This document shows, in pieces, positions 5,405-16,564 of a stretch of DNA of 64,000 bases. The DNA is from Leptotrichia sp. OH3620_COT-345 (GTDB taxonomy: Bacteria > Fusobacteriota > Fusobacteriia > Fusobacteriales > Leptotrichiaceae): positions 62,001 through 126,000 of the forward strand of contig NZ_RQYW01000002.1 in NCBI RefSeq assembly GCF_003932895.1, written 5' to 3'. The translations under genes were made by a program, and so were the position numbers. The notes beneath the pieces are model-generated. The model saw only the letters and a program-made list of their open reading frames with translations. It searched no databases and was not told the DNA's origin. The stretch's first letter is position 1. Each line of letters starts with the position of its first letter.

Positions 5405-5433
5405 TTGAAAAAAAACATTAATTTTGCTATACT
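5405..5433 (+). promoter_or_regulatory. Promoter of the pel-like operon
   Basis: TTGAAA (5405-5410), a 17-base spacer and TATACT (5428-5433), with TGC directly before the -10 box. Transcription should begin near 5440, giving a leader of about 190 bases before pelD. A near-palindrome GTTAAATTCAAC at about 5440-5451 overlaps the expected start and could be an operator. Confidence 0.75.
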
Positions 5434-5456
5434 TAGTGAGTTAAATTCAACTATAC

Positions 5457-5565
5457 AATTATAAAGAAATCTTTCTTTTTTATAATTATACTTTAAAGTT
5501 TTATTTTTAAATTACTAATTAAAATAAAAGAAATAGTTATTCATATTTATTTATAATATGAATAA
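5457..5565 (+). promoter_or_regulatory. Two AT-rich hairpins in the pel leader
   Basis: The first inverted repeat pairs AATTATAAA (5457-5465) with TTTATAATT (5479-5487). The second is a perfect 11-pair arm, TTATTCATATT (5537-5547) with AATATGAATAA (5555-5565), around a seven-base loop. Both lie in the untranslated leader between the promoter and pelD. They resemble no known riboswitch; neither GEMM cyclic-di-GMP aptamer consensus is present. Confidence 0.5.
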
Positions 5566-5627
5566 TATGGATTCTTTTGTTTGTTAAAACTTCAATTTAA
5601 AACTCAACAAAGAAATGGAGGACATTT

Positions 5628-6554
5628 ATGAAAAATTTATTCAGATGTTTACTTGAAAGTTCTGTGTATACTTTAGTAGTTATCGTTATTTTTTATTTTC
5701 TCCCTTTTTCAAAAGAACATTTTTTAATTTTGAATTTACATCCTCTGGCAATAGTTGTAGCTTTTATGGCTCTACGTTACGGGATTTATCTCGGATTTGT
5801 AAGTGCGTTGGTTACTACATTGGGATATATTTATGTATACTCAGCTTTAGGAAATGACATGGTTCTTTTTCTTCTAAAATTTCAGTATTATAAGTTTTTC
5901 CTTATGTTTTTATTTATTGCCATGTTTCTTGGAAGGTTTCAGACAAATTACAAAACTAGAGAAGAAGATCTTAAAAGAGAAATGTACAACCTTAAATCTT
6001 TATTGGAATCTGCGGAAAAAACAAATTCAGAATTGTTAAATATAAATCTTTCATTGAAAAACCAGATTATACAAAGTAAAGGAAGCATTCTTTCCTTTCA
6101 GAATGTAAAGAAAAACCTTTTCGAAAAAACGAATATAGAGGCAGTTTACGAAGATTCCATGAATATTCTGAAACAGTTTCTGGACTGTGAAAAAGCGGGT
6201 ATTTTTACTCTTGAAAATAATATTCTGGAAAATAAAGTACAGCTTTCAGATTCTTTCATTGAAAATGAAATGCCGATAACTTCAGAAAATGCCCACAGAT
6301 TTATGGAAACTTTTAAAAAAGGAGTACCGTTAGAATTTCCCATTGATTTAAACGGAAAAAATCCCGTTTTTATCGCTCCTTTATTTACAGGAAAGGAAAT
6401 TAACGGATTTCTGGAAGTAGAAAGTCTTACTTACAGTACATCTAAAAGCTATAACTTTGAAGTATTTAAAATTATAGCTTCGGAGATTAACAATGCATTG
6501 AAAATTATTCAAGAAAGAAATAAAAGTAAGGAAAAAAAAGATTATGAAATTTAA
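5628..6554 (+). CDS. pelD: PelD-like membrane regulator, GAF domain only
   Basis: Inner-membrane protein expected to scaffold and regulate the Pel polysaccharide synthase. About residues 1-100 hold three to four membrane segments. Residues 105-150 form a charged coiled coil (LKREMYNLKSLLESAEKTNS), and 150-300 form a GAF-like domain ending in a long helix. At 308 residues it is much shorter than the Pseudomonas PelD (about 455), because the C-terminal degenerate GGDEF domain that binds cyclic-di-GMP through its RxxD site is missing. The identity rests on the domain order and on the pelA, pelE, pelF and pelG genes behind it. The ribosome binding site GGAGGA fixes the start. The stop overlaps the next start by 11 bases, implying coupled translation. 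Confidence 0.8.
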   Translation: MKNLFRCLLESSVYTLVVIVIFYFLPFSKEHFLILNLHPLAIVVAFMALRYGIYLGFVSALVTTLGYIYVYSALGNDMVLFLLKFQYYKFFLMFLFIAMFLGRFQTNYKTREEDLKREMYNLKSLLESAEKTNSELLNINLSLKNQIIQSKGSILSFQNVKKNLFEKTNIEAVYEDSMNILKQFLDCEKAGIFTLENNILENKVQLSDSFIENEMPITSENAHRFMETFKKGVPLEFPIDLNGKNPVFIAPLFTGKEINGFLEVESLTYSTSKSYNFEVFKIIASEINNALKIIQERNKSKEKKDYEI

Positions 6555-8370
6555 GTATTTTTTCATTATAATTCTCATTATAGAATTATTTTTACAAGTA
6601 AATCGTATAGTAAACAAGGGAAGCTATTTTTCAATATCACAGGAAGTATCTTTTGAAAAAAAAGCTCCTAAAAATTCCAAATATCCATTTAAACGTACTC
6701 AGAAAATGCTTGTATATTATAATAAAAAATCTGAACAGTCAATGAATATACTTTATAATCTTGAGCATATGTTCAAGTACAATAAAATAAATTACACTGT
6801 GGCAGATATCGGAGAAATAATACCTACATCGGATTACGATACTTTTATTTTTGCAACGGAAACTTTTATAGGGTTTCAAAAAAGTATGTTTGAAACTATA
6901 CGGAAAGAAACTTTTGAAGGAAAAAAACTTATATTTTTAAATAATACCCCGTATAATCCCTTTAATGAAATTGCAGGAATTAAAAAAGTAGATTCCTTAG
7001 TTGAAAATTCTTCAGAAATTTTCTTTTCTGAAAAACTTTTTCCGGGTCTTGATAAATACAGTCCTACAAAAGAAATAGTAGTACATCCTACCATGAAGGT
7101 ACAAATTGACAGTGATGTTAGAATCCTTGCCAGAAGTAAGGAAAATATTCCCTTACTTTGGGAAAAAACTTATGGAAAAGGTCTTATTTTATATACAAAT
7201 GCATCATTTTTTGCCGACAGAATAACACGAGGACTTATGAATCAATGGATTGGATATGGAAATGACTGGTATATCACACCCATTTTAAATGCAAAACTGA
7301 TGCATATAGATGATTTTCCTGCCCCTGTACCCCGTACATTAAACTCAAATATCCACAATCACTATCATATAAGTACAAGGGATTTTTATAAGCAGATATG
7401 GTGGAAAGATATGCTCGAAATTGCCAAACGGAGAAATATTATTTTCAGCGGATTTATAATCATTGATTATAATCATACAGTCCGTAAGGAAAATATGAAA
7501 AGAATCTCCGATCTTACATTGAAGGATTTGAGTCTTGAAGGAAGAGAACTGTTTCTACATCACGGCGAATTGGGAGTCCACGGCTATAACCATAATCCTT
7601 TAGTTTATAACAGAAAGGAAGTAAATTTTAAAGCGCTTAATTATGTTCCATGGGAAAATCAGGAAGATATGGCGGCAAGTATAAATCAGATAAAAAGCTA
7701 TGTAAAGGAACTTTTCGGAAGCAAAGTAAAACTATATACATATGTTCCTCCAAGTAACATCATAAGAAACGAAGGACTGGAAGCTATTGTAAAAAACTTT
7801 CCTGATATGAATACCGTTTCTGCAATATTTTATGGTAATTCAGATGAGGGAGCGTATGTACAGGAAGTTGAACGTAATAGAGATTTTCCGTCTTTATACA
7901 ATCTTCCCAGATTTTCTTCAGGATTCTATTACGATAATAATGAAATGTGGAGTTTGTACAATGCCATTGCCACTTATGGCTACTGGTCACATTTTGTTCA
8001 TCCTGATGATCTTATATCCAAAGACAGAAGTAGAAACAAATCATGGGCGGAATTAAAAGGAGAATTTGAAAAAATTCTTATAGATGTTGAGGCAAATATA
8101 CCTTTTCTTACATCTATGAGAGCCGTAGATATGACAAAAAAATATGCAAACATTGAAGATATTAAAATTTTCTCTGAAAAACTGGGAAATGAAATTCATG
8201 TAGGAGTAGAAAATTTTAGAGATCCTTTTGATACATTAATAAGAGTAAGAAACAAAAAAATTAATAAAATTTCTTCAGGTACATTCAGAGAAGTTTACAA
8301 CACTGGAAATACAAGGATTTATCTTGTTTCAATAAATAATGAAGATACCACAATTTATTTAGGTGATTAA
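6544..8370 (+). CDS. pelA: PelA-type polysaccharide deacetylase (deacetylase part only)
   Basis: Probably removes acetyl groups from the N-acetylgalactosamine-rich Pel polymer outside the inner membrane. A single N-terminal membrane anchor (residues 5-20) is followed by an alpha/beta domain (about 50-245). The metal-dependent deacetylase domain follows, with HIDDFPAP at residue 254 (two Asp) and HGYNH at 346-350 as the H-x3-H metal site. TYVPPSN near 400 and WSHFVHPDD near 480 complete the active site. In Pseudomonas PelA a hydrolase domain precedes this one; here it is absent, and a separate hydrolase-like gene lies at 14191. This matches the deacetylase-only PelA known from Gram-positive pel clusters. 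It overlaps pelD by 11 bases. Confidence 0.85.
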   Translation: MKFKYFFIIILIIELFLQVNRIVNKGSYFSISQEVSFEKKAPKNSKYPFKRTQKMLVYYNKKSEQSMNILYNLEHMFKYNKINYTVADIGEIIPTSDYDTFIFATETFIGFQKSMFETIRKETFEGKKLIFLNNTPYNPFNEIAGIKKVDSLVENSSEIFFSEKLFPGLDKYSPTKEIVVHPTMKVQIDSDVRILARSKENIPLLWEKTYGKGLILYTNASFFADRITRGLMNQWIGYGNDWYITPILNAKLMHIDDFPAPVPRTLNSNIHNHYHISTRDFYKQIWWKDMLEIAKRRNIIFSGFIIIDYNHTVRKENMKRISDLTLKDLSLEGRELFLHHGELGVHGYNHNPLVYNRKEVNFKALNYVPWENQEDMAASINQIKSYVKELFGSKVKLYTYVPPSNIIRNEGLEAIVKNFPDMNTVSAIFYGNSDEGAYVQEVERNRDFPSLYNLPRFSSGFYYDNNEMWSLYNAIATYGYWSHFVHPDDLISKDRSRNKSWAELKGEFEKILIDVEANIPFLTSMRAVDMTKKYANIEDIKIFSEKLGNEIHVGVENFRDPFDTLIRVRNKKINKISSGTFREVYNTGNTRIYLVSINNEDTTIYLGD

Positions 8371-8371
8371 A

Positions 8372-9310
8372 ATGTTTAAACGGAAAAAAATGATTACGTT
8401 TTTATTAACAGCAGTTTTGTTTGTTATAGAAATAATAATAATAAAATATTTTTATACTCCAAAAAATCTTTCAACTTTTAAAAGTCCTTTTTGGATTCTT
8501 CACGAAATTTCGGTTCTTACCTTTATAGGAATCTGTCATTTTTTATTAAAGGAAGATATAGGCTATTATGATATTTTTCTTATATTTTTTCCTTTAATAG
8601 GAGTTTCTTTGCTATTTCTTGACCTCCTCCTACTGAAATGGACAGTTTCTCAGTCACTTGTAGAAGAAATACTTTATGAGGAGCTGAAAAAGAAGGATAC
8701 AAGTAGTGAAAGTTTTCTGAAATCTGATTTTGATGTAATGAACTCTTACGATTTGCTTATGTCGGATAATACGGAAAAAAAGAAAAAATTTCTCTTTTCC
8801 TATCAACCCGAGGATATTTCCATGAAAACTGAAATATTACAGCGAGCTCTTTTAGATGAAAATATAGACGTAATACATTATGCCGCTACAGAGCTCAATA
8901 AAATAGATACTAAAATACAGGAAGAAATAAATATTGCTGAAAATTCTCGAGAAAAGGATACTTACAAAATTTATAAATTATATAAAAAATATACCGCTTC
9001 AGGACTTCTTTTCGGTCCAATTCTGGAATTTTACCAGAAAAAAATGTTCGAATTACTGAATGAACTGAAATTAAACAGTAAAGACTTTGAAATAGAGCAA
9101 CTGAGCTTATACAGACAGATGAATATGAAAAAAGAATATGAAGTGCTTTTAAAAAAATACATTGAGAAGTATTCAGATACATTAATTATTTCAGAATATT
9201 TAAAATTTCTATATAAAGAAAACCGTCTTAAAGAAATGATTTCAGAATATAAAAGATACAGTGAATTACATACTGATATTGAAGCCCCTTATTTTTTGGC
9301 TGAAATTTGA
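8372..9310 (+). CDS. pelE: PelE-like membrane protein with TPR-like helices
   Basis: Expected to join PelD and the synthase in the inner-membrane Pel complex. There are three hydrophobic segments in about the first 95 residues. The rest, about 220 residues, is helical and charged, with spacing like tetratricopeptide repeats (for example LYRQMNMKKEYEVLLKKY). A GTG nine bases upstream, at 8363, is in frame, but it lies inside the ribosome binding site AGGTGA, so the ATG at 8372 is the better start. pelA stops at 8370, one base before. Length (312 residues) fits PelE (about 330). Sequence alone would not identify it; position between pelA and pelF is the main evidence. Confidence 0.7.
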   Translation: MFKRKKMITFLLTAVLFVIEIIIIKYFYTPKNLSTFKSPFWILHEISVLTFIGICHFLLKEDIGYYDIFLIFFPLIGVSLLFLDLLLLKWTVSQSLVEEILYEELKKKDTSSESFLKSDFDVMNSYDLLMSDNTEKKKKFLFSYQPEDISMKTEILQRALLDENIDVIHYAATELNKIDTKIQEEINIAENSREKDTYKIYKLYKKYTASGLLFGPILEFYQKKMFELLNELKLNSKDFEIEQLSLYRQMNMKKEYEVLLKKYIEKYSDTLIISEYLKFLYKENRLKEMISEYKRYSELHTDIEAPYFLAEI

Positions 9311-9335
9311 AAATAAGGTAAAAAGGAGTTAAGCA

Positions 9336-10754
9336 ATGGCTGTTATTTGTTTTATATGCGAGGGTTCATACCCTTACATAGTCGGGGGAGTTTCATCATG
9401 GGTTCATGAACTGATTACATCCAACCCTCAACATTTTTTTAAAATACTCTGCATCATTCCCAATAAGGAATTTGCAAAACTAAAATATAAAATACCTAAA
9501 AATGTCATAGAAATTAAAAATCTCTATATGGATCCTTATTTAGATTTTTCTTACTTGAAAGTTTTAAAAGACGGTATGGAAGAAAATCAAAATAAGGAAA
9601 AAAGTATTGAAGAGCTGCTTCGTTTTCAGATAACCGAAGAGCAGGAAAAATTGGATCGACTGGAAAATGTTTTTTCAAAGGAATTAGGTACACCTCTTGA
9701 AATTGTTTTAAGTAAAGAATATTGGAATGTCTTACTTAAATACTACGAAAAATACCATTCCAAAGGTAATTTCAGTACATATTACTGGACATATAGGAAC
9801 ATTATACTGAATCTGCTGAAAATAGGACAGGAAAATGTACCTAAAGCGAATATTTATCATAGTGTTACTACAGGATATGCAGGGTTTATATGTTCCCTTA
9901 TAGCTCATAGAAAAAACGGAAAATTTCTTCTGACTGAACACGGAATTTATCCCCGTGAAAGGGAGGAGGAAATTTTAGGAGCTACATGGATTGACAGGGA
10001 TTTTAAAAGTATATGGATTGATTATTTTTATTATCTTTCAAAACTCGCTTATAAATATGCCGATAAAATTATTTCTCTGTTTGAATACAATAGACAGATA
10101 CAGATAGAATACGGAGCTCCCGAAGAAAAAACTTTAGTTATACCTAACGGAGTGGATGAAAATAAATATGGCTCCATTGTAAAGAAAAAAAGAGAAGGAT
10201 TTCATATAGGTTCAGTTTTAAGAGTTGTTCCAATTAAAGATCTGAAGATGATGATAAAAGGATTTAAAATTGCATCGGAAAAAATGCCTGATGCCGTCCT
10301 CTGGCTTATCGGACCTACAGATGAAGATGAGGATTACTATAAAGAATGCTTACAATTGGTGGAAAATCTGGAATTAAAGGAAAAAGTCATCTTTACGGGA
10401 CGGGCTGACGTAACAGAATATTATTCTTTTCTCGACCTTCTCCTTCTGACTTCCATATCCGAGGGACAACCTCTCAGCATATTGGAAGGCCTTGCCTCAG
10501 GGATTCCATTTATTGCCACTGATGTAGGAAACTGTAGAGAAATACTCATAGAAAAAAAAGAAATAGGAGAAGCAGGAGTAATTATCCCTCCAACTTCATA
10601 TATAGCTTTGGCTGAAGCATTAGTAAATCTTTACAATAATCCTGAAAAACTGCAGAAATTTTCTGAAAATGGGAAAAAAATAATAAATAAATATTACAGA
10701 AAAAAAGATTTTATTGAAAACTATAGAAAAATATATGATGAGTTGGGAGGTTAA
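9336..10754 (+). CDS. pelF: PelF, GT4 glycosyltransferase of the Pel synthase
   Basis: Cytosolic family GT4 enzyme that polymerises the Pel sugar from a UDP-activated N-acetylhexosamine. The N-terminus CEGSYPYIVGGVSSWVHELI is the diagnostic PelF opening. The nucleotide-sugar site is visible as SVLRVVPIKDLKMM and as an E-x7-E motif in SEGQPLSILEGLASG (about residue 375). At 472 residues it is slightly shorter than the Pseudomonas protein (507). A ribosome binding site AAAGGAG precedes the start, and the stop is one base before pelG. This is the most certain of the pel calls. Confidence 0.93.
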   Translation: MAVICFICEGSYPYIVGGVSSWVHELITSNPQHFFKILCIIPNKEFAKLKYKIPKNVIEIKNLYMDPYLDFSYLKVLKDGMEENQNKEKSIEELLRFQITEEQEKLDRLENVFSKELGTPLEIVLSKEYWNVLLKYYEKYHSKGNFSTYYWTYRNIILNLLKIGQENVPKANIYHSVTTGYAGFICSLIAHRKNGKFLLTEHGIYPREREEEILGATWIDRDFKSIWIDYFYYLSKLAYKYADKIISLFEYNRQIQIEYGAPEEKTLVIPNGVDENKYGSIVKKKREGFHIGSVLRVVPIKDLKMMIKGFKIASEKMPDAVLWLIGPTDEDEDYYKECLQLVENLELKEKVIFTGRADVTEYYSFLDLLLLTSISEGQPLSILEGLASGIPFIATDVGNCREILIEKKEIGEAGVIIPPTSYIALAEALVNLYNNPEKLQKFSENGKKIINKYYRKKDFIENYRKIYDELGG

Positions 10755-10755
10755 A

Positions 10756-13065
10756 ATGGCAGGAATAGGATTTGAATTAAAAAAATTATTTTTAGAACAG
10801 GAAAAACTTTTCGGGAATATAAAAGCCCTTGTTTTTTCTGCCGCAATCAGTGTAGGACCATGGATTATAACTTCGACTTCCCTGAACCTACTCATTTTGA
10901 TTTCCAAAAGCATTAATTTATCAAGAACTGAACAGACTCTTTTTATGAGCAGTATTTTTTATGCTTTTATTTTTTCCCAGATTTTAACAGGAGCTTTCCA
11001 GTATCTTATTACAAGATATGTTTCAGACTGTATTTTTCAGGAAAAAATACATAAAATAAGAGGAGCATATTTAGGAAGCATAAAACTGACAGGGATTCTT
11101 TCATTTTTTATAAGTTTTATCTTTATAAGTAGGGGACATTTATCACCGGCTTATAAATCAGCTTTTGTACTTCTTTTTATGAGTATGTGTCTTTCATGGA
11201 TTACTATGATTTTTGTTTCATTACTGAAAAAATATCATTTTATAATTTTCAGTTTTTTTCTAGGAAATATGACTTCAGTAATTTTAGGGTACTACTTTCT
11301 AAAATATCCTGTTTCCTTTATTAATGAAACCCCGACTTTCTGGATGTTATTTTCCTACAGTGCAGGTATCTTTCTGAATTTTGTACTAACTTCAATGTAT
11401 ATACTTAGAGCCTTTCAGGGAAAAGGGAAAAATCAGTTTGAATTCCTTGTTTATTTAAAAGGATATTTCAGTTTGGTATCAATAGGAATTCTTTATATAC
11501 TCGGTGTCTGGGGACACGTTTTTATGAACTGGATTGTAGGGGATTCTTATCTCCTTGCAAATGTATTCATTATTTCCCCACTATACGAAGTTGCAGTTTT
11601 CTATTCATACTGTACTGCTATTCCAAGTATTATTTACTTTACAATTTTTCTTGAAACAAAATTTTTACCTATATACAAGGAATATTACAGCCGTATTTCC
11701 CAGACAGGTCGTTATGAGGAAATTCAGGATTCACTAAAAAGAATGAAACGAATTTTATATCAGGAAATTCTTTATGCTATGGAACTTCAGTTCCTTATAT
11801 CATTGACATTTATTTTACTGGCAAACGTAATATTCAGCCATTTTGATATGGACTCATATTTATTGGATTTATTTCGTATAACTATTTTCGGAACTTTCTG
11901 TGCAATATTTATTTCTATTTTAATTACTTTGTTCCTTTACTTTGATTTAAGACTGCAATCACTTATACTTTCTACAACTTTATTTGGAACAAGCTTAATA
12001 TTTACATATTTTTTCGGAAAACTGGGAAAAGAATTTACAGGAATGGGATTTTTCCTTTCCTCTTTCATAAGTTTCGGACTGGCAATATATATGTTCCCTA
12101 AAATATTTGATACATTAAATTATACAACCATGTTCAGACAAAATTTTAATTATAAAGTTGGAGGTGTCTTTTTGAAAAAAATCAGTTTACTGTTAGACAG
12201 AAAAATCTATATCGGAATAATAGTAGGACTTCTCTTTATTCTAGGAAGCTGCAATATTCATGCAGCATATGATAAAAGAGGATTTAATCCGAAAACACGT
12301 AATAACTGGCATACAATGAGCCAATATGACCGTGACGGCTATGATATAGACGGTTACACAAGAGAGGGAATTAATAAGAGAGGATTTAATAAGTCTCGTC
12401 TTAACACTGCTACTAAAACTCCTTATGACTATGCCGGATTTGATTTTGACGGTATACATAAAGAAACAAAGAAATCTTATGATGAAAGGGGATTTAATGT
12501 CGAGCTTTACAATATTCTGACCGACTCCCCTTATGATAAAAACGGTTTTGATCATTCAGGAATTCATAAGGATACTAAAAAAGAATATGATCATAATGGT
12601 TGGAACTATTACGGATTACATGAAAAAACAAAAGATTACTATAATCCTGAAGGGTGGAATGTAGAAGGAATTAATAAAAGAGGATTTAATAAAGACGGTT
12701 GGAATATAGAAACTAAAAGTAAGTATGACGGGGGAGGATTTGATTTAAGCGGTACTCATAAAGTTACTAAAAAAAAGTATGACGAAAGAGGATTTGATGT
12801 AAATCAGTACAATCATTTTACACACTCTCTTTATGATAAATACGGATTTAATTATGAAGGTATAAACAAAGACACCAAAAGGGAATATGATAAAAACGGT
12901 TGGACTTACTACGGGTTACATGAAAAAACAAAAACTTATTACAATCCTCAAGGATATAACAGAGAGGGCTTTGACAGAGAAGGATACAGAAAAGGACAAA
13001 GACCTGAAGATGAATACGATAAAAACGGGTTTAACAAAAAAGGAATATATATAAAGGGGTACTAA
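10756..13065 (+). CDS. pelG: PelG membrane translocase, in frame with a C-terminal repeat domain
   Basis: Residues 1-470 are a PelG-type polytopic protein: MAGIGFELKKLF and SVGPWIITS are typical, and about 12 membrane segments follow. It should move the growing Pel chain across the inner membrane together with PelF. PelG normally ends near 455-475 residues. Here the frame continues without a stop for about 297 more codons, first a hydrophobic stretch ending in a lipobox, then a Tyr/Asp/Gly-rich repeat domain, to 769 residues. The start at 10756 has a GGGAGG ribosome binding site; an in-frame ATG at 10714 lies inside pelF and has none. The internal TTG at 12172 could make the last part a separate protein (see next entry). 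Confidence 0.88.
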   Translation: MAGIGFELKKLFLEQEKLFGNIKALVFSAAISVGPWIITSTSLNLLILISKSINLSRTEQTLFMSSIFYAFIFSQILTGAFQYLITRYVSDCIFQEKIHKIRGAYLGSIKLTGILSFFISFIFISRGHLSPAYKSAFVLLFMSMCLSWITMIFVSLLKKYHFIIFSFFLGNMTSVILGYYFLKYPVSFINETPTFWMLFSYSAGIFLNFVLTSMYILRAFQGKGKNQFEFLVYLKGYFSLVSIGILYILGVWGHVFMNWIVGDSYLLANVFIISPLYEVAVFYSYCTAIPSIIYFTIFLETKFLPIYKEYYSRISQTGRYEEIQDSLKRMKRILYQEILYAMELQFLISLTFILLANVIFSHFDMDSYLLDLFRITIFGTFCAIFISILITLFLYFDLRLQSLILSTTLFGTSLIFTYFFGKLGKEFTGMGFFLSSFISFGLAIYMFPKIFDTLNYTTMFRQNFNYKVGGVFLKKISLLLDRKIYIGIIVGLLFILGSCNIHAAYDKRGFNPKTRNNWHTMSQYDRDGYDIDGYTREGINKRGFNKSRLNTATKTPYDYAGFDFDGIHKETKKSYDERGFNVELYNILTDSPYDKNGFDHSGIHKDTKKEYDHNGWNYYGLHEKTKDYYNPEGWNVEGINKRGFNKDGWNIETKSKYDGGGFDLSGTHKVTKKKYDERGFDVNQYNHFTHSLYDKYGFNYEGINKDTKREYDKNGWTYYGLHEKTKTYYNPQGYNREGFDREGYRKGQRPEDEYDKNGFNKKGIYIKGY
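12172..13065 (+). CDS. Nested repeat lipoprotein, alternative in-frame start inside pelG
   Basis: A TTG codon at 12172, in the pelG frame, stands seven bases behind GGAGG. From it reads MKKISLLLDRKIYIGIIVGL and then LFILGSC, a proper lipoprotein signal with Cys at residue 27, and a 270-residue repeat domain. So the ribosome could make a 297-residue lipoprotein on its own, as well as, or instead of, the PelG fusion. If fused, the signal would act as one more membrane span and would still place the repeats outside the inner membrane. An outer-membrane lipoprotein next to a barrel gene recalls PelC beside PelB in Pseudomonas, but no sequence likeness to PelC is seen. Confidence 0.5.
   Translation: MKKISLLLDRKIYIGIIVGLLFILGSCNIHAAYDKRGFNPKTRNNWHTMSQYDRDGYDIDGYTREGINKRGFNKSRLNTATKTPYDYAGFDFDGIHKETKKSYDERGFNVELYNILTDSPYDKNGFDHSGIHKDTKKEYDHNGWNYYGLHEKTKDYYNPEGWNVEGINKRGFNKDGWNIETKSKYDGGGFDLSGTHKVTKKKYDERGFDVNQYNHFTHSLYDKYGFNYEGINKDTKREYDKNGWTYYGLHEKTKTYYNPQGYNREGFDREGYRKGQRPEDEYDKNGFNKKGIYIKGY
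12268..13062 (+). repeat. Protein-coding repeat region, Y-D-x2-G-[FW]-N type
   Basis: The encoded repeats have short units such as YDKNGFD, GIHKDTKKEYD and GLHEKTK with regular Tyr, Asp, Gly and Phe/Trp. A larger unit of 100 codons is also duplicated: the block starting at 12424 (YDYAGFDFDGIHKETKK) recurs exactly 300 bases later at 12724 (YDGGGFDLSGTHKVTKK). The following subunit (EYDHNGWNYYGLHEKTK) recurs too (EYDKNGWTYYGLHEKTK). This shows growth by in-frame duplication. Confidence 0.85.
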
Positions 13066-14033
13066 TGAAAATAAAATTAAAAATACTTTTTGCTTTAACA
13101 GCTTTTTCGATATTTTCCTTTTCAGAAGAAGAAAATCTTGAAAAAGGCGATATTGTACTAAAAGACAGAGGAGTGGAAAAGTTGAATTTTTATCATCCTG
13201 TAAAAGAACAAAATAAATTTTCCACTTTTACAGAATTTGACTTCCGCCCCGATAAAAACATTTATCAGTGGACTTTAGCCGAAGGATATCAATCCATCAC
13301 TAACTTATGGGACTTCAACTATAAAATAGAAAAGGAATTTCATCAGGAAAAAAACAGGGAAAAGCCTGATTCGCATGTCTGGGATAATGAAATATCTCTT
13401 GTAAGAAGAAATAAGGATAAAAAAATTGGAAATTCGACATGGGCTTATAGAACTTTCTTTAAAATTAATCATGCTGAAACCGACGGGAAAAAAATACAAA
13501 GAACTTCTACTTATAAATTTTATGGAGGGCAGAAAATTTCATCTTTTCTTTCTTTAGGAAAAGGAGGAACTTATGTAGAATTTGAAGCCGCTGCAGGTGG
13601 AGTTAAAGGAAGCTTAAAAAACGGATATTCATTACTTGTATCACTTAAAACAGGCAGTAATCTCGGATATGGAATACAATGGAGCAATACTTTTGAAAAT
13701 GAATATATGAATTACAATCAATATAGAAAAATAAATAAATCCAAATGGGAAACTTTATTAAAGTGGACATATGAACTGAATGAAAATTGGGCATTTTCTC
13801 CTGAACTGAATTTCAAAATAGAAAACTTTATTCCGAAAAAACAGGAAAATTATGCTATTGAATCAACAATCGGATCTTATATACTATACTCAAAAAATTT
13901 GAATGATCGTCTAAGAATTTTCGGGAAAATAGGACCTTCATACAGAATAGAGAAAAGTAAATCTAAGGATTTCCATTATTCAAAATCTGGATTTGCAGGT
14001 TATGCCAGACTCGGTATAGAATATATTTTCTAA
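13065..14033 (+). CDS. Outer-membrane beta-barrel protein of the pel operon
   Basis: The product (322 residues) has a Sec signal peptide (MKIKLKILFALTAFSIFSFS). A chain of amphipathic strands follows, with alternating hydrophobic residues and frequent aromatic belt residues, and it ends in YARLGIEYIF; a terminal Phe is the usual outer-membrane barrel signal. The start overlaps the preceding stop by one base (TAATG), so it is translated with pelG. No TPR region is seen, unlike Pseudomonas PelB, whose C-terminal barrel it may replace as the exit channel for the polymer. That role is inferred from position. The alternative is an unrelated barrel carried in the operon. Confidence 0.7.
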   Translation: MKIKLKILFALTAFSIFSFSEEENLEKGDIVLKDRGVEKLNFYHPVKEQNKFSTFTEFDFRPDKNIYQWTLAEGYQSITNLWDFNYKIEKEFHQEKNREKPDSHVWDNEISLVRRNKDKKIGNSTWAYRTFFKINHAETDGKKIQRTSTYKFYGGQKISSFLSLGKGGTYVEFEAAAGGVKGSLKNGYSLLVSLKTGSNLGYGIQWSNTFENEYMNYNQYRKINKSKWETLLKWTYELNENWAFSPELNFKIENFIPKKQENYAIESTIGSYILYSKNLNDRLRIFGKIGPSYRIEKSKSKDFHYSKSGFAGYARLGIEYIF

Positions 14034-14190
14034 ATCATTATTTTTATAAGATTAATATTTATGATACAATATTTTAACTCAAAATAAAAAATATAATCTT
14101 ATTTTCAAATATTTTCTATTATTATGCAACAAGAAAATATAAAAAACTAAATTTCTTATTAAGTAATATTTTTGAAAGGAACTGTACTAT

Positions 14191-15219
14191 ATGAAAAAAT
14201 ATATATTTTTACTGATTTTTGTATTCTGTATCTCATGTTTTTCAAAGGAAAATCCTTCAAAGGAAATATCTTTAAAAAAAGAAGAAACAAAAAAGGAAAC
14301 CTTCGTGCAGGATTCTGCTAAAGAAATTCCCGAAGAAATATATCGTAACAGAATGAAGAATTTTATAAGGGAGATACGTAACAATACAGAAAAAAACAGA
14401 ATCATTATTACACAGAACGGAAATGAACTATACTTCAGTAACGGAAAAATTGATATGAATTTTTTTAATGTTACTAATGGAACTACACAAGAATCTCTAT
14501 ATTATGGGGATGTGTTAAAATTCAACATTCCTACTTCAAAAAAACTGAAAAATGAATTACTGAACCTCGCTATTCCTGTAAGAAAAGCCGGAAAACCTGT
14601 CTTTGTTATTAATTATGGAAAAGGGCAGACAAAAAAAGATTTTCTTATTAAGGAAGATATAAAAACAGGATTTATAAGTGAAATATTGCCTAACTTTGAA
14701 GCTAAAAATATATATTCTCCTGTCAGAGGATATAATACCGGCAATATTACTTCATTAAATCAGGTCAAAAATTTCTTATGTCTTTTAAATCCTGAAAACT
14801 TTAAGGATATTAACGAATATTTTGAATATCTGAAAAATACGGATTATGATCTACTGCTCATAGAACCTTCCCATAATGGGATATTTTTTACAAAAGAGCA
14901 GACGGAACAGCTGAAAACAAAAAAGAACGGTGGAAAAAGAATAGTAATCGCCTATTTTAGCATAGGAGAAGCTGAAGATTATAGAAGTTATTGGAATAAA
15001 TCATGGAGTAAAAAAAGACCTGAATGGATTGTTGGCGAAAATCCTGACTGGAAAGGAAATTATGTAGTGAAATACTGGAGATCTGAATGGAAAAATATTG
15101 TAAAAGGATACCAGAAAAAACTCGATGCAATAGGTGTAGATGGCTATCTTCTTGATACGGTGGATTCTTATTATTATTTTCAGGATAAAGCAGAGAAGGG
15201 GAAAAAAATTCCTGACTAA
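14191..15219 (+). CDS. Lipoprotein with a GH114-like glycoside hydrolase domain, apparently truncated
   Basis: A lipoprotein signal (FVFCISC, Cys near residue 11) leads to about 170 residues of unknown region. Next comes a domain of the MJ1477/TM1410, endo-alpha-1,4-polygalactosaminidase kind: YFSIGEAEDYRSYW, RPEWIVGENPDWKGNY, then GVDGYLLDTVDSYYYF. This is the family to which the hydrolase part of PelA is related, so the protein probably trims or frees Pel polymer at the outer membrane. Family members usually go on for about 100 more residues to complete the TIM barrel; this one stops soon after the sixth strand (343 residues). A hairpin lies 12 bases after the stop. It has its own ribosome binding site, 157 bases after the barrel gene. 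Confidence 0.72.
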   Translation: MKKYIFLLIFVFCISCFSKENPSKEISLKKEETKKETFVQDSAKEIPEEIYRNRMKNFIREIRNNTEKNRIIITQNGNELYFSNGKIDMNFFNVTNGTTQESLYYGDVLKFNIPTSKKLKNELLNLAIPVRKAGKPVFVINYGKGQTKKDFLIKEDIKTGFISEILPNFEAKNIYSPVRGYNTGNITSLNQVKNFLCLLNPENFKDINEYFEYLKNTDYDLLLIEPSHNGIFFTKEQTEQLKTKKNGGKRIVIAYFSIGEAEDYRSYWNKSWSKKRPEWIVGENPDWKGNYVVKYWRSEWKNIVKGYQKKLDAIGVDGYLLDTVDSYYYFQDKAEKGKKIPD

Positions 15220-15230
15220 TTTTCAAATAT

Positions 15231-15259
15231 CTATGAGTCGGTTTATAACTGACTCATAG
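15231..15259 (+). terminator. Strong hairpin at the end of the pel operon
   Basis: CTATGAGTCGGTT and AACTGACTCATAG form a 13-pair stem (one G-T pair) around a TAT loop. It lies just after the hydrolase stop codon. No T-run follows (AGCTTAAAAATAC), so it is an unusual terminator; it may act as an RNA-stabilising 3' end or be the scar of a rearrangement. Confidence 0.6.
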
Positions 15260-15652: not shown

Positions 15653-16564
15653 GTGAAAAAGTTATTTAGAAAAAAGTTTTTAAAATTGTTAGAAGTTATC
15701 TTTTTTATATTTTTTTTATTGGGATGTTTTAACGAAAAAAGTAAAATAAAAACAAGCAAGCTTGAATTTCAAAATCAAAAATACATAAGTGAGGAAATAT
15801 CAAAAAAAAGTAATAAAATAAATCGTAATCTTCCATCTTTGGAATATAAATATAAAATAATTATAAATCAACCGGGTGGAATAGTCCATACTCAAGATGA
15901 AAATTACTATTCTGTAGATAAAAATGAAAATGAAAAAATATGGGAAAAAATGGTTATAAAAGAACTGGAAAAGCTTAATCCTGTTCCTGAAAATGCTTCA
16001 GATGAGGAAATACAACATCTTCTGAAACAATTTATATATATTATGGGCTCTAAGTATGAAGCTATAGAAACTTTCGACAAATTTTCCCATGTTATTTTTA
16101 AAAGTGAGGAAACTGATTCAACTATTGATAGGAAGATGGCTGTTGACGAGTTAAATGTCACAGAAAACAGTCAGGAAAAATTAGATGAAAACTTAATAAA
16201 AAAACTTCAAGATTCTCATTATAATATATTAAAAGCCAATTCGAGATTAAAAGATGAAACTGTATCTGAAATAAATAATCTGTATAAGACATTCAGAATG
16301 GCTTCAGACTCTAATTATATTAAAAATCCTATCTTTAAATTTGACGGTATTGTGTCATCAAAGCTTTTTAGATTGGGAGAAAAAAGAAATCTTAAAATCT
16401 ATTCCCTTTATGAAGAGGAATTGGAAAAACTCCAAAAGCAGTCTGAAGAGTATTTAAAAAAAGTTAAGCTGCGAACGGGAGAAACGGTAATTTACGTTCC
16501 TACTACAAGTACGGTTACTCCTTCCAGTAAGTATTATAAAGAGAAAAAAGAAAGAAAAAATTAA
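15653..16564 (+). CDS. Lipoprotein of unknown function
   Basis: I do not recognise a family. The product has 303 residues with a basic, hydrophobic leader ending in the lipobox FLLGC (Cys near residue 25). The mature protein is hydrophilic and mostly helical, rich in Lys, Glu and Asn, with a helical section around residues 95-215 and a coiled-coil-like part near 245-275. Its tail is basic and probably disordered. The start is GTG behind AAAGGAAGTGA. It stands alone between the pel operon and a convergent gene, and shares a two-way terminator with it at 16588-16613. A role tied to the polysaccharide is possible only by proximity. Confidence 0.65.
   Translation: MKKLFRKKFLKLLEVIFFIFFLLGCFNEKSKIKTSKLEFQNQKYISEEISKKSNKINRNLPSLEYKYKIIINQPGGIVHTQDENYYSVDKNENEKIWEKMVIKELEKLNPVPENASDEEIQHLLKQFIYIMGSKYEAIETFDKFSHVIFKSEETDSTIDRKMAVDELNVTENSQEKLDENLIKKLQDSHYNILKANSRLKDETVSEINNLYKTFRMASDSNYIKNPIFKFDGIVSSKLFRLGEKRNLKIYSLYEEELEKLQKQSEEYLKKVKLRTGETVIYVPTTSTVTPSSKYYKEKKERKN

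What the first reader, a model, noticed from the sequence alone, without database searches (positions are those of the whole stretch)
5405..15259. A pel-like exopolysaccharide operon with its own outer-membrane parts in a fusobacterium-like genome
Seen: promoter, then pelD, a deacetylase-only pelA, pelE, pelF, pelG, a repeat lipoprotein, an outer-membrane barrel and a GH114-like lipoprotein, nearly all overlapping or abutting. Known: pel operons of Proteobacteria have pelA (hydrolase plus deacetylase), pelB (TPR plus barrel) and pelC; Gram-positive clusters have pelD, pelE, deacetylase-only pelA, pelF and pelG. Inference: the inner-membrane part here is of the Gram-positive kind, joined to new outer-membrane pieces in place of PelB and PelC. 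That would be a third design of Pel export.
Basis: partly seen in the sequence, partly recalled or inferred. Interest (0 to 1): 0.8.

Follow-up and report, generated by a model that had tools for sequence, protein, structure and literature searches.

The report
Pel flippase fused to exported parts
This is a real gene cluster for a sticky biofilm sugar polymer; unexpectedly, the inner-membrane exporter PelG is encoded as one protein with a repeat-rich piece that probably works outside the inner membrane, next to a lineage-specific outer-membrane pore, so these bacteria seem to have built their own way of getting the polymer out.

Summary
The pel-like operon is real (window 5628-15219, Leptotrichiaceae-like Fusobacteriota). 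PelF and PelG pass curated cut-offs. PelA is the DUF2194/CE26 deacetylase of Bacillus cereus. PelD and PelE profiles recognise PelD and PelE elsewhere. PelB and PelC were not found in this genome or nine relatives. The main correction: the "repeat lipoprotein" is not a separate gene. It is the C-terminal half of PelG, in one open frame: 12 transmembrane helices, a 13th helix ending in a lipobox (LGSC), then an ordered repeat solenoid. The fusion occurs in 18 of the 24 PelG-bearing Fusobacteriota genomes. The lipobox cysteine is kept in 16 of 19 copies; the other three have AxA signal-peptidase-I-like sites. A pel-specific 14-stranded barrel follows (21 of 24 PelG genomes, 1 of 74 others). Similar PelG fusions occur with CotH in Bacilli, with a barrel in one fusobacterial genus, and with a coiled-coil/barrel in one negativicute; sister lineages encode homologous modules separately. 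Best reading: PelG is made as a fusion with its export partner, and helix 13 acts as an internal, probably cleaved signal peptide. Cleavage, pore function and polymer identity are inferred, not shown.

The parts
5405..5433 (+). sigma-70-like promoter TTGAAA-17-TATACT with TG before the -10 box
   Evidence: consensus scan, 10 of 12 matches; number of such sites in the region not above shuffles
5628..6554 (+). pelD-like: N-terminal membrane helices, coiled coil, GAF; no GGDEF domain
   Evidence: family alignment A2; GAF hits in 13 of 17 members; profile finds Bacillota and delta-proteobacterial PelD; GGDEF absent
6544..8370 (+). pelA-type deacetylase (DUF2194, CE26/CBM114-like), DD and HxxxH motifs conserved, no hydrolase domain
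   Evidence: PF09960 335 bits; full-length match to PDB 9ZAU, B. cereus PelADA; motifs
8363..9310 (+). pelE-like: N-terminal membrane segment plus helical repeats
   Evidence: alignment A4; weak TPR/alpha-repeat hits; profile finds Bacillota PelE at about E 1e-20
9336..10754 (+). pelF glycosyltransferase
   Evidence: NCBIfam NF038011 384 bits, PF11997 301 bits
10756..12171 (+). pelG flippase domain (12 TM, MATE/MurJ/WzxE-like)
   Evidence: PF16933 423 bits; AF2 model; Foldseek
12160..12174 (+). candidate internal ribosome-binding site (GGAGGTG) and TTG start inside the fused frame; similar site in 5 Leptotrichiaceae loci, absent in the Fusobacterium-type loci
12205..12261 (+). 13th transmembrane helix (aa 484-502) ending in lipobox LGSC; Cys codon 12250-12252
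   Evidence: AF2 model; junction alignment
12253..13065 (+). exported repeat domain of the PelG fusion, about 18-aa YDxxGFDxxGIHxxT units
   Evidence: found only at PelG in this genome and absent from PelG-less sister G085
13065..14033 (+). 14-stranded outer-membrane beta-barrel with signal peptide, C-terminal EYIF
   Evidence: PF13505; AF2 pLDDT 87.6; closest folds CymA/OmpG; pel-specific in the phylum
14191..15219 (+). secreted GH114/TM1410-family hydrolase, circularly permuted
15231..15259 (+). inverted repeat after the last gene (ATGAGTC..GACTCAT), possible terminator without a T run
   Evidence: sequence; not scored as a terminator

Best explanation
The locus encodes a Pel-like exopolysaccharide synthesis and export machine. 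PelD/E/F/G make and flip the polymer at the inner membrane, the DUF2194 PelA deacetylates it as it emerges, and a fusobacterial outer-membrane module carries it out. The 14-stranded barrel is the probable exit pore in place of PelB's barrel. The repeat solenoid is the periplasmic guide in place of the PelB TPR domain and PelC. The solenoid is translated as the C-terminal half of PelG. PelG's 12 helices end in the cytoplasm, and a 13th helix, apparently the former signal peptide of the guide protein, carries the solenoid across. Signal peptidase II (or signal peptidase I where the Cys is replaced by an AxA site) probably cuts behind it, giving a PelG flippase and an equimolar, locally delivered lipoprotein. 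Shown by computation: gene identities, the single frame, its recurrence, conservation of the cleavage-like motif, absence of PelB/PelC, pel-specificity of the barrel. Inferred: cleavage, guide and pore roles, polymer identity.
For: Family matches above cut-off and full-length match to B. cereus PelADA. One open frame in 18 of 24 PelG genomes of the phylum. AF2: 12 TM + linker helix + TM13 + ordered solenoid, pLDDT 84. Lipobox Cys in 16 of 19 repeat fusions; the three without it have AxA-like sites. Fusobacterium-type loci L039, L043, L044 and L045 have no convincing SD plus start between PelG and the lipobox, so there the exported part seems to be made only as a fusion. Genus g25 encodes PelG and the repeat lipoprotein as neighbouring separate genes with the lipoprotein's own signal peptide. 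Parallel fusions: PelG-CotH with lipobox Cys in 17 of 17 Bacilli loci (CotH 218 bits); PelG-barrel in genus g18, whose barrel is a stand-alone signal-peptide protein in Mcinerneyibacterium; PelG-coiled coil-barrel in one negativicute, separate in its sisters. LspA in all 11 genomes tested. Barrel in 21 of 24 PelG genomes against 1 of 74, p = 3e-17. PelB/PelC absent.
Against: No biochemical evidence of cleavage or of polymer. In Leptotrichiaceae an internal Shine-Dalgarno plus TTG/GTG suggests the exported part can also be started independently. Genus g18 lacks a lipobox and a clear AxA site. The repeat domain and barrel are not consistently acidic (window pI 8.7 and 9.2), so electrostatic guiding of a cationic polymer, as proposed for PelC, is not supported here. 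Foldseek TM-scores to CymA/OmpG are only about 0.5, and pore width was not measured.
Confidence: 0.62

Rival explanations
1. The fusion stays intact: the 13th helix is an ordinary anchor, and the solenoid (or, in g18 and G361, the linker plus barrel) is a covalent tether that bridges inner and outer membrane, as proposed for PelB.
For: PelB of P. aeruginosa has been proposed to span both membranes through an uncleaved N-terminal helix (PMC12141448). g18 has no lipobox and a long low-complexity linker before the barrel.
Against: Lipobox Cys kept in 16 of 19 repeat fusions and 17 of 17 CotH fusions, with AxA-like sites in the exceptions; a mere anchor needs neither. CotH fusions occur in monoderm Bacilli, where there is no outer membrane to bridge.
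Confidence: 0.25
2. The repeat protein is made mostly as an independent lipoprotein from the internal TTG/GTG start, and the missing stop between it and PelG is a neutral accident.
For: GGAGG-type site 5-8 nt before TTG/GTG in all five Leptotrichiaceae loci, including this window.
Against: The Fusobacterium-type and g18 loci and most Bacilli loci have no plausible start between PelG and the cleavage site. PelG has no stop of its own in any of the 18 fused genomes, so every PelG made carries the extension. The GG codons also encode residues of a linker motif.
Confidence: 0.15
3. The cluster makes a different, non-Pel polymer; PelF/PelG homology reflects only a shared synthase scaffold.
For: Outer-membrane parts in Leptotrichiaceae are basic, unlike the acidic ones elsewhere in the phylum. 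No polymer has been characterised here.
Against: The deacetylase family (CE26) has shown activity on alpha-1,4-GalNAc oligomers (PMC13254593). The associated hydrolase belongs to the GH114/TM1410 family, annotated as endo-alpha-1,4-polygalactosaminidase in Fusobacterium nucleatum. The full D/A/E/F/G set is present.
Confidence: 0.15

Closest known systems
Gram-positive pelDEADAFG cluster of Bacillus cereus ATCC 10987 (Whitfield 2020, PMC7112168; PelADA PMC13254593)
   Same: PelD, PelE, deacetylase-only DUF2194 PelA (same family as 9ZAU), PelF, PelG; no PelB/PelC
   Different: order D-A-E-F-G; PelG fused to an exported repeat; outer-membrane barrel; permuted GH114 in the operon; PelD without GGDEF
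pelABCDEFG of Pseudomonas aeruginosa (PelB/PelC export complex, PMC12141448)
   Same: same polymerase/flippase core; a barrel plus a repeat scaffold plus a lipoprotein at the outer membrane by function
   Different: no PelB or PelC homologue detected; 14 strands rather than 16; repeat is a non-TPR solenoid attached to PelG, not to the barrel; PelA lacks the hydrolase domain
Streptococcus/Clostridium pel clusters with separate CotH, polyphosphate polymerase and DUF4956 genes (PMC7112168, PMC12345266)
   Same: exported accessory protein encoded next to pelG; PelD without GGDEF in streptococci
   Different: CotH is separate there, whereas Bacilli found here fuse it to PelG through a lipobox helix; Fusobacteriota use a different exported domain
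pel cluster of Negativicutes (Anaerovibrio, L083/L084)
   Same: Gram-positive-type core in a diderm, with an outer-membrane barrel-like gene right after pelG and a GH114 gene
   Different: coiled-coil plus barrel protein of about 680 aa unrelated to the fusobacterial barrel; fused to PelG in one genome only (G361)

Membership tests
Pel polysaccharide biosynthesis system | PelF glycosyltransferase | tested here: met
   NF038011 384 bits, cut-off 100
Pel polysaccharide biosynthesis system | PelG flippase | tested here: met
   PF16933 423 bits, cut-off 29; MOP/MATE fold
Pel polysaccharide biosynthesis system | PelD receptor (TM + GAF + degenerate GGDEF with RxxD) | tested here: inconclusive
   TM and GAF present, profile matches PelD elsewhere; GGDEF/RxxD lost in the window, retained in 13 of 15 clusters whose genomes have GGDEF proteins and in 0 of 8 others
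Pel polysaccharide biosynthesis system | PelE interaction module | tested here: met
   profile A4 finds Bacillota PelE (E about 1e-20) and weakly proteobacterial PelE
Pel polysaccharide biosynthesis system | PelA deacetylase | tested here: met
   full-length match to B. cereus PelADA 9ZAU, E 1e-133; DD and HxxxH motifs in all members
Pel polysaccharide biosynthesis system | polymer of alpha-1,4 GalN/GalNAc | not testable with these tools
   needs chemistry
Gram-negative Pel export (PelB/PelC) | PelB TPR-barrel protein | tested here: not met
   no hit in G000 and none credible in 9 relatives (one weak TPR-region hit in G041, E 0.01); control hit E 0
Gram-negative Pel export (PelB/PelC) | PelC lipoprotein | tested here: not met
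   no hit in G000 and 9 relatives; control hit E 1.5e-75
Gram-positive pelDEADAFG type | deacetylase-only PelA of the DUF2194/CE26 family | tested here: met
Gram-positive pelDEADAFG type | gene order D-E-A-F-G | tested here: not met
   order here is D-A-E-F-G
Bacterial lipoprotein | lipobox with Cys at the end of a hydrophobic helix | tested here: met
   LGSC in window; 16 of 19 repeat fusions
Bacterial lipoprotein | N-terminal signal peptide | tested here: not met
   the helix is internal, after 12 PelG helices; an internal TTG start could provide one in Leptotrichiaceae only
Bacterial lipoprotein | lipidation and cleavage by Lgt/LspA | not testable with these tools
   LspA gene present in all 11 genomes tested; processing needs experiment

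The most novel reading that the evidence does not exclude
PelG is a carrier polyprotein: across at least three phylum- or class-level lineages the signal peptide of the export partner (repeat lipoprotein, CotH lipoprotein, or outer-membrane barrel) has been built into the flippase as a 13th helix, and cleavage of this internal signal by signal peptidase II or I releases a lipoprotein or outer-membrane protein from a polytopic transporter, ensuring equal dose and local delivery.
Probability: 0.5. Interest if true: 0.82.

Novelty: new variant of a known kind. Interest (0 to 1): 0.7.

Why it matters
It shows a Pel machine in diderms without PelB/PelC and names specific replacement parts, so the question of what a Pel exporter minimally needs at the outer membrane becomes testable. 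The recurrent in-frame fusion of a 12-helix flippase to a lipobox-bearing or barrel module suggests internal signal-peptide processing of a polytopic membrane protein. In the papers searched (open-licence full text; no preprints and few subscription journals) I found no description of this. If processing does not happen, the proteins would instead be covalent inner-to-outer membrane bridges, which is equally notable. PelD in this phylum also gives a clean natural experiment in losing c-di-GMP control.

Tried and rejected
A first genome search used a wrong Pfam number (Tle3_C) and says nothing about Pel. The idea that the window GH114 ORF is a truncated pseudogene was rejected: relatives have the same ends, and the missing half sits at the N-terminus (circular permutation). 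The idea that the g18 C-terminal domain belongs to the same barrel family was rejected (hhalign probability 0.1), but it matches a Mcinerneyibacterium stand-alone protein. Electrostatic guiding by an acidic repeat was tested and not supported in this lineage. Rfam found no RNA element in the region. DNA-level tandem repeats in the solenoid are negligible, so the repeats are old. Foldseek of the fused model returned only transporter folds and no match for the solenoid. Pfam gave no family for the repeat domain at E <= 1. The Fisher p-value and the barrel p-value ignore shared ancestry.
Full report
WHAT IS THERE. The window carries a run of + strand genes from 5628 to 15219. PelF (NCBIfam PelF, 384 bits against a cut-off of 100) and PelG (PF16933, 423 bits against 29) pass their curated thresholds. 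The gene between PelD and PelE is DUF2194 (PF09960). A profile of 14 relatives matches PDB 9ZAU over its whole length at E 1e-133; 9ZAU is B. cereus PelADA, founding member of CE26/CBM114 (PMC13254593). Its DD and HxxxH motifs are intact in all members. The first gene has GAF-type hits in 13 of 17 family members, and its profile recognises PelD of Bacillota at about 1e-50 and of sulfate reducers at about 1e-40. The PelE profile recognises Bacillota PelE at about 1e-20. The inner-membrane part is therefore Pel-like and of the Gram-positive kind, although the order is D-A-E-F-G.

THE REPEAT PIECE IS PART OF PELG. There is no stop codon between the two: 10756-13065 is one frame of 769 codons. PelG matched over its cut-off in 24 of 98 Fusobacteriota genomes. 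Eighteen of these have the same fusion (open frames about 700-910 aa), two genomes of one genus (g18) have PelG fused to a different C-terminal domain, and four genomes of another genus (g25) have PelG of 513 aa followed by a separate repeat lipoprotein with its own signal peptide. An AlphaFold2 model of the window protein (pLDDT 84) shows 12 PelG helices, an amphipathic linker helix (471-481), a 13th helix (484-502) and an ordered solenoid (about 510-740). Foldseek gives MATE, MurJ and WzxE for the transporter part. With an even number of PelG helices, the extra helix puts the repeats on the periplasmic side (inference; the linker is also rich in Lys/Arg).

THE 13TH HELIX LOOKS LIKE A CLEAVABLE SIGNAL. 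It ends in a lipobox with Cys in 16 of 19 repeat fusions. The three without Cys (L040, L042, L054) have AxA-type sites a few residues on (ANA, IKA, AHA), which resembles a switch from signal peptidase II to I. Fusobacterium-type loci (L039, L043, L044, L045) have no convincing Shine-Dalgarno plus start between PelG and the lipobox, and the linker evolves like coding sequence in closely related pairs. In five Leptotrichiaceae loci, including this window, a GGAGG-type site precedes a TTG or GTG, so independent initiation may add to the fused product there. LspA is encoded in all 11 genomes tested.

THE SAME TRICK ELSEWHERE. In a sample of 250 Paenibacillales genomes, 21 of 47 PelG frames are 1037 aa or longer (not all inspected). 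In Negativicutes 1 of 19 is fused: the C-terminal part of G361 is homologous (E about 1e-33) to a 680-aa coiled-coil/barrel-like protein that sister genomes encode as a separate gene directly after pelG. The g18 C-terminal domain matches a stand-alone signal-peptide protein in the pel cluster of Candidatus Mcinerneyibacterium at E 1e-21 (the sequences are compositionally biased but share long motifs). In streptococci and clostridia CotH is a separate gene (PMC7112168). So different exported partners have been attached to the same end of PelG in several lineages, each time through a signal-peptide-like helix.

THE OUTER-MEMBRANE PART. PelC and PelB profiles built from proteobacterial loci find nothing credible in this genome or nine other pel-bearing Fusobacteriota, while the Photobacterium control is hit at E 1.5e-75 and 0. 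The gene after PelG is a predicted 14-stranded barrel (pLDDT 87.6) with a signal peptide and a C-terminal aromatic residue. Its nearest folds are CymA and OmpG, both 14-stranded channels, at TM-scores near 0.5. Over the phylum it is strong (E < 1e-80) in 21 of 24 PelG genomes and in 1 of 74 without detected PelG (that one is 62% complete); Fisher p = 3e-17, ignoring kinship. The duplicated pel cluster of G006 has two barrels. In genus g25 the barrel lies divergently upstream of the cluster.

REGULATION. The window PelD ends after GAF. Across the phylum the RxxD c-di-GMP site is kept in 13 of 15 clusters whose genomes have at least 6 GGDEF genes and in 0 of 8 clusters with at most one (p = 9e-5, ignoring kinship). 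This supports that these are real PelD proteins and that this lineage has dropped c-di-GMP control, as streptococci have (PMC7112168, PMC12345266). Published RNA-seq of Fusobacterium nucleatum TDC 100 lists seven consecutively numbered loci (GH114, hypothetical, pelG, pelF, hypothetical, DUF2194, hypothetical) as strongly down together in co-culture (PMC9848294). That matches this operon order and indicates joint expression. The same table annotates PelG as Pel transporter, so presence of pel in fusobacteria is known at annotation level.

MECHANISM. PelF makes and PelG flips the polymer under PelD/PelE; PelA deacetylates it as it emerges, as proposed for B. cereus. The repeat solenoid (18% aromatic) then guides it to the barrel. 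Making the guide as part of PelG fixes dose and place; signal peptidase II or I probably frees it. Cleavage, guide role and pore role are inferred. The main rival is an uncut tether, for which PelB itself has been proposed as a precedent (PMC12141448). Against it stand the conserved cleavage motifs and the CotH fusions in monoderm bacteria.

LIMITS. Processing and polymer chemistry are untested. The window repeat (pI 8.7) and barrel (pI 9.2) are basic, so electrostatic guiding of a cationic polymer is not supported here, although most other genera have acidic versions. The literature library lacks most subscription papers and all preprints, so novelty is judged only against what it holds.

Noticed in passing
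window 14191-15219; A12 relatives: The pel-linked GH114/TM1410-family hydrolase of Fusobacteriota is circularly permuted: window aa 215-332 match TM1410 24-140 and aa 53-142 match TM1410 151-236. Genus g18 (L034) keeps the normal order.
   Followed up: partly
window 5628-6554 and PelD of relatives: The c-di-GMP RxxD site of PelD is kept where the genome encodes GGDEF proteins and lost where it does not (13 of 15 against 0 of 8). The second pel copy of G006 (L036) has lost it although the genome has GGDEFs.
   Followed up: yes
barrel of window, L037, L040, L042, L054 against the rest: Barrels are basic (pI 9.1-9.4) in Leptotrichiaceae plus L037 and acidic (4.4-5.2) elsewhere in the phylum; the split nearly follows loss of the PelD c-di-GMP domain. 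Reason unknown; could mean a differently charged polymer or only proteome bias.
   Followed up: no
L083, L084, L138, L135: Negativicutes with Gram-positive-type pel carry a coiled-coil plus barrel-like protein of about 680 aa right after pelG, with no Pfam hit; in G361 it is fused to PelG.
   Followed up: partly
L032, L047, L054, L038: Decaying or mis-assembled pel genes: pelA and pelF split in L032, pelF split in L047, pelG interrupted in L054, barrel gapped in L038.
   Followed up: no
L092:10001-12649: A planctomycete PelG has a 400-aa low-complexity acidic C-terminal extension without an extra helix, unlike the lipobox fusions.
   Followed up: no
window 15653-16564: A lipoprotein-like ORF downstream, shared with sister genome G086 (L038) but not with other pel clusters; probably not part of the system.
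   Followed up: no
window 12172-12174 and equivalents: Internal SD plus TTG/GTG inside the fused frame in five Leptotrichiaceae loci suggests two products from one frame in this family.
   Followed up: partly
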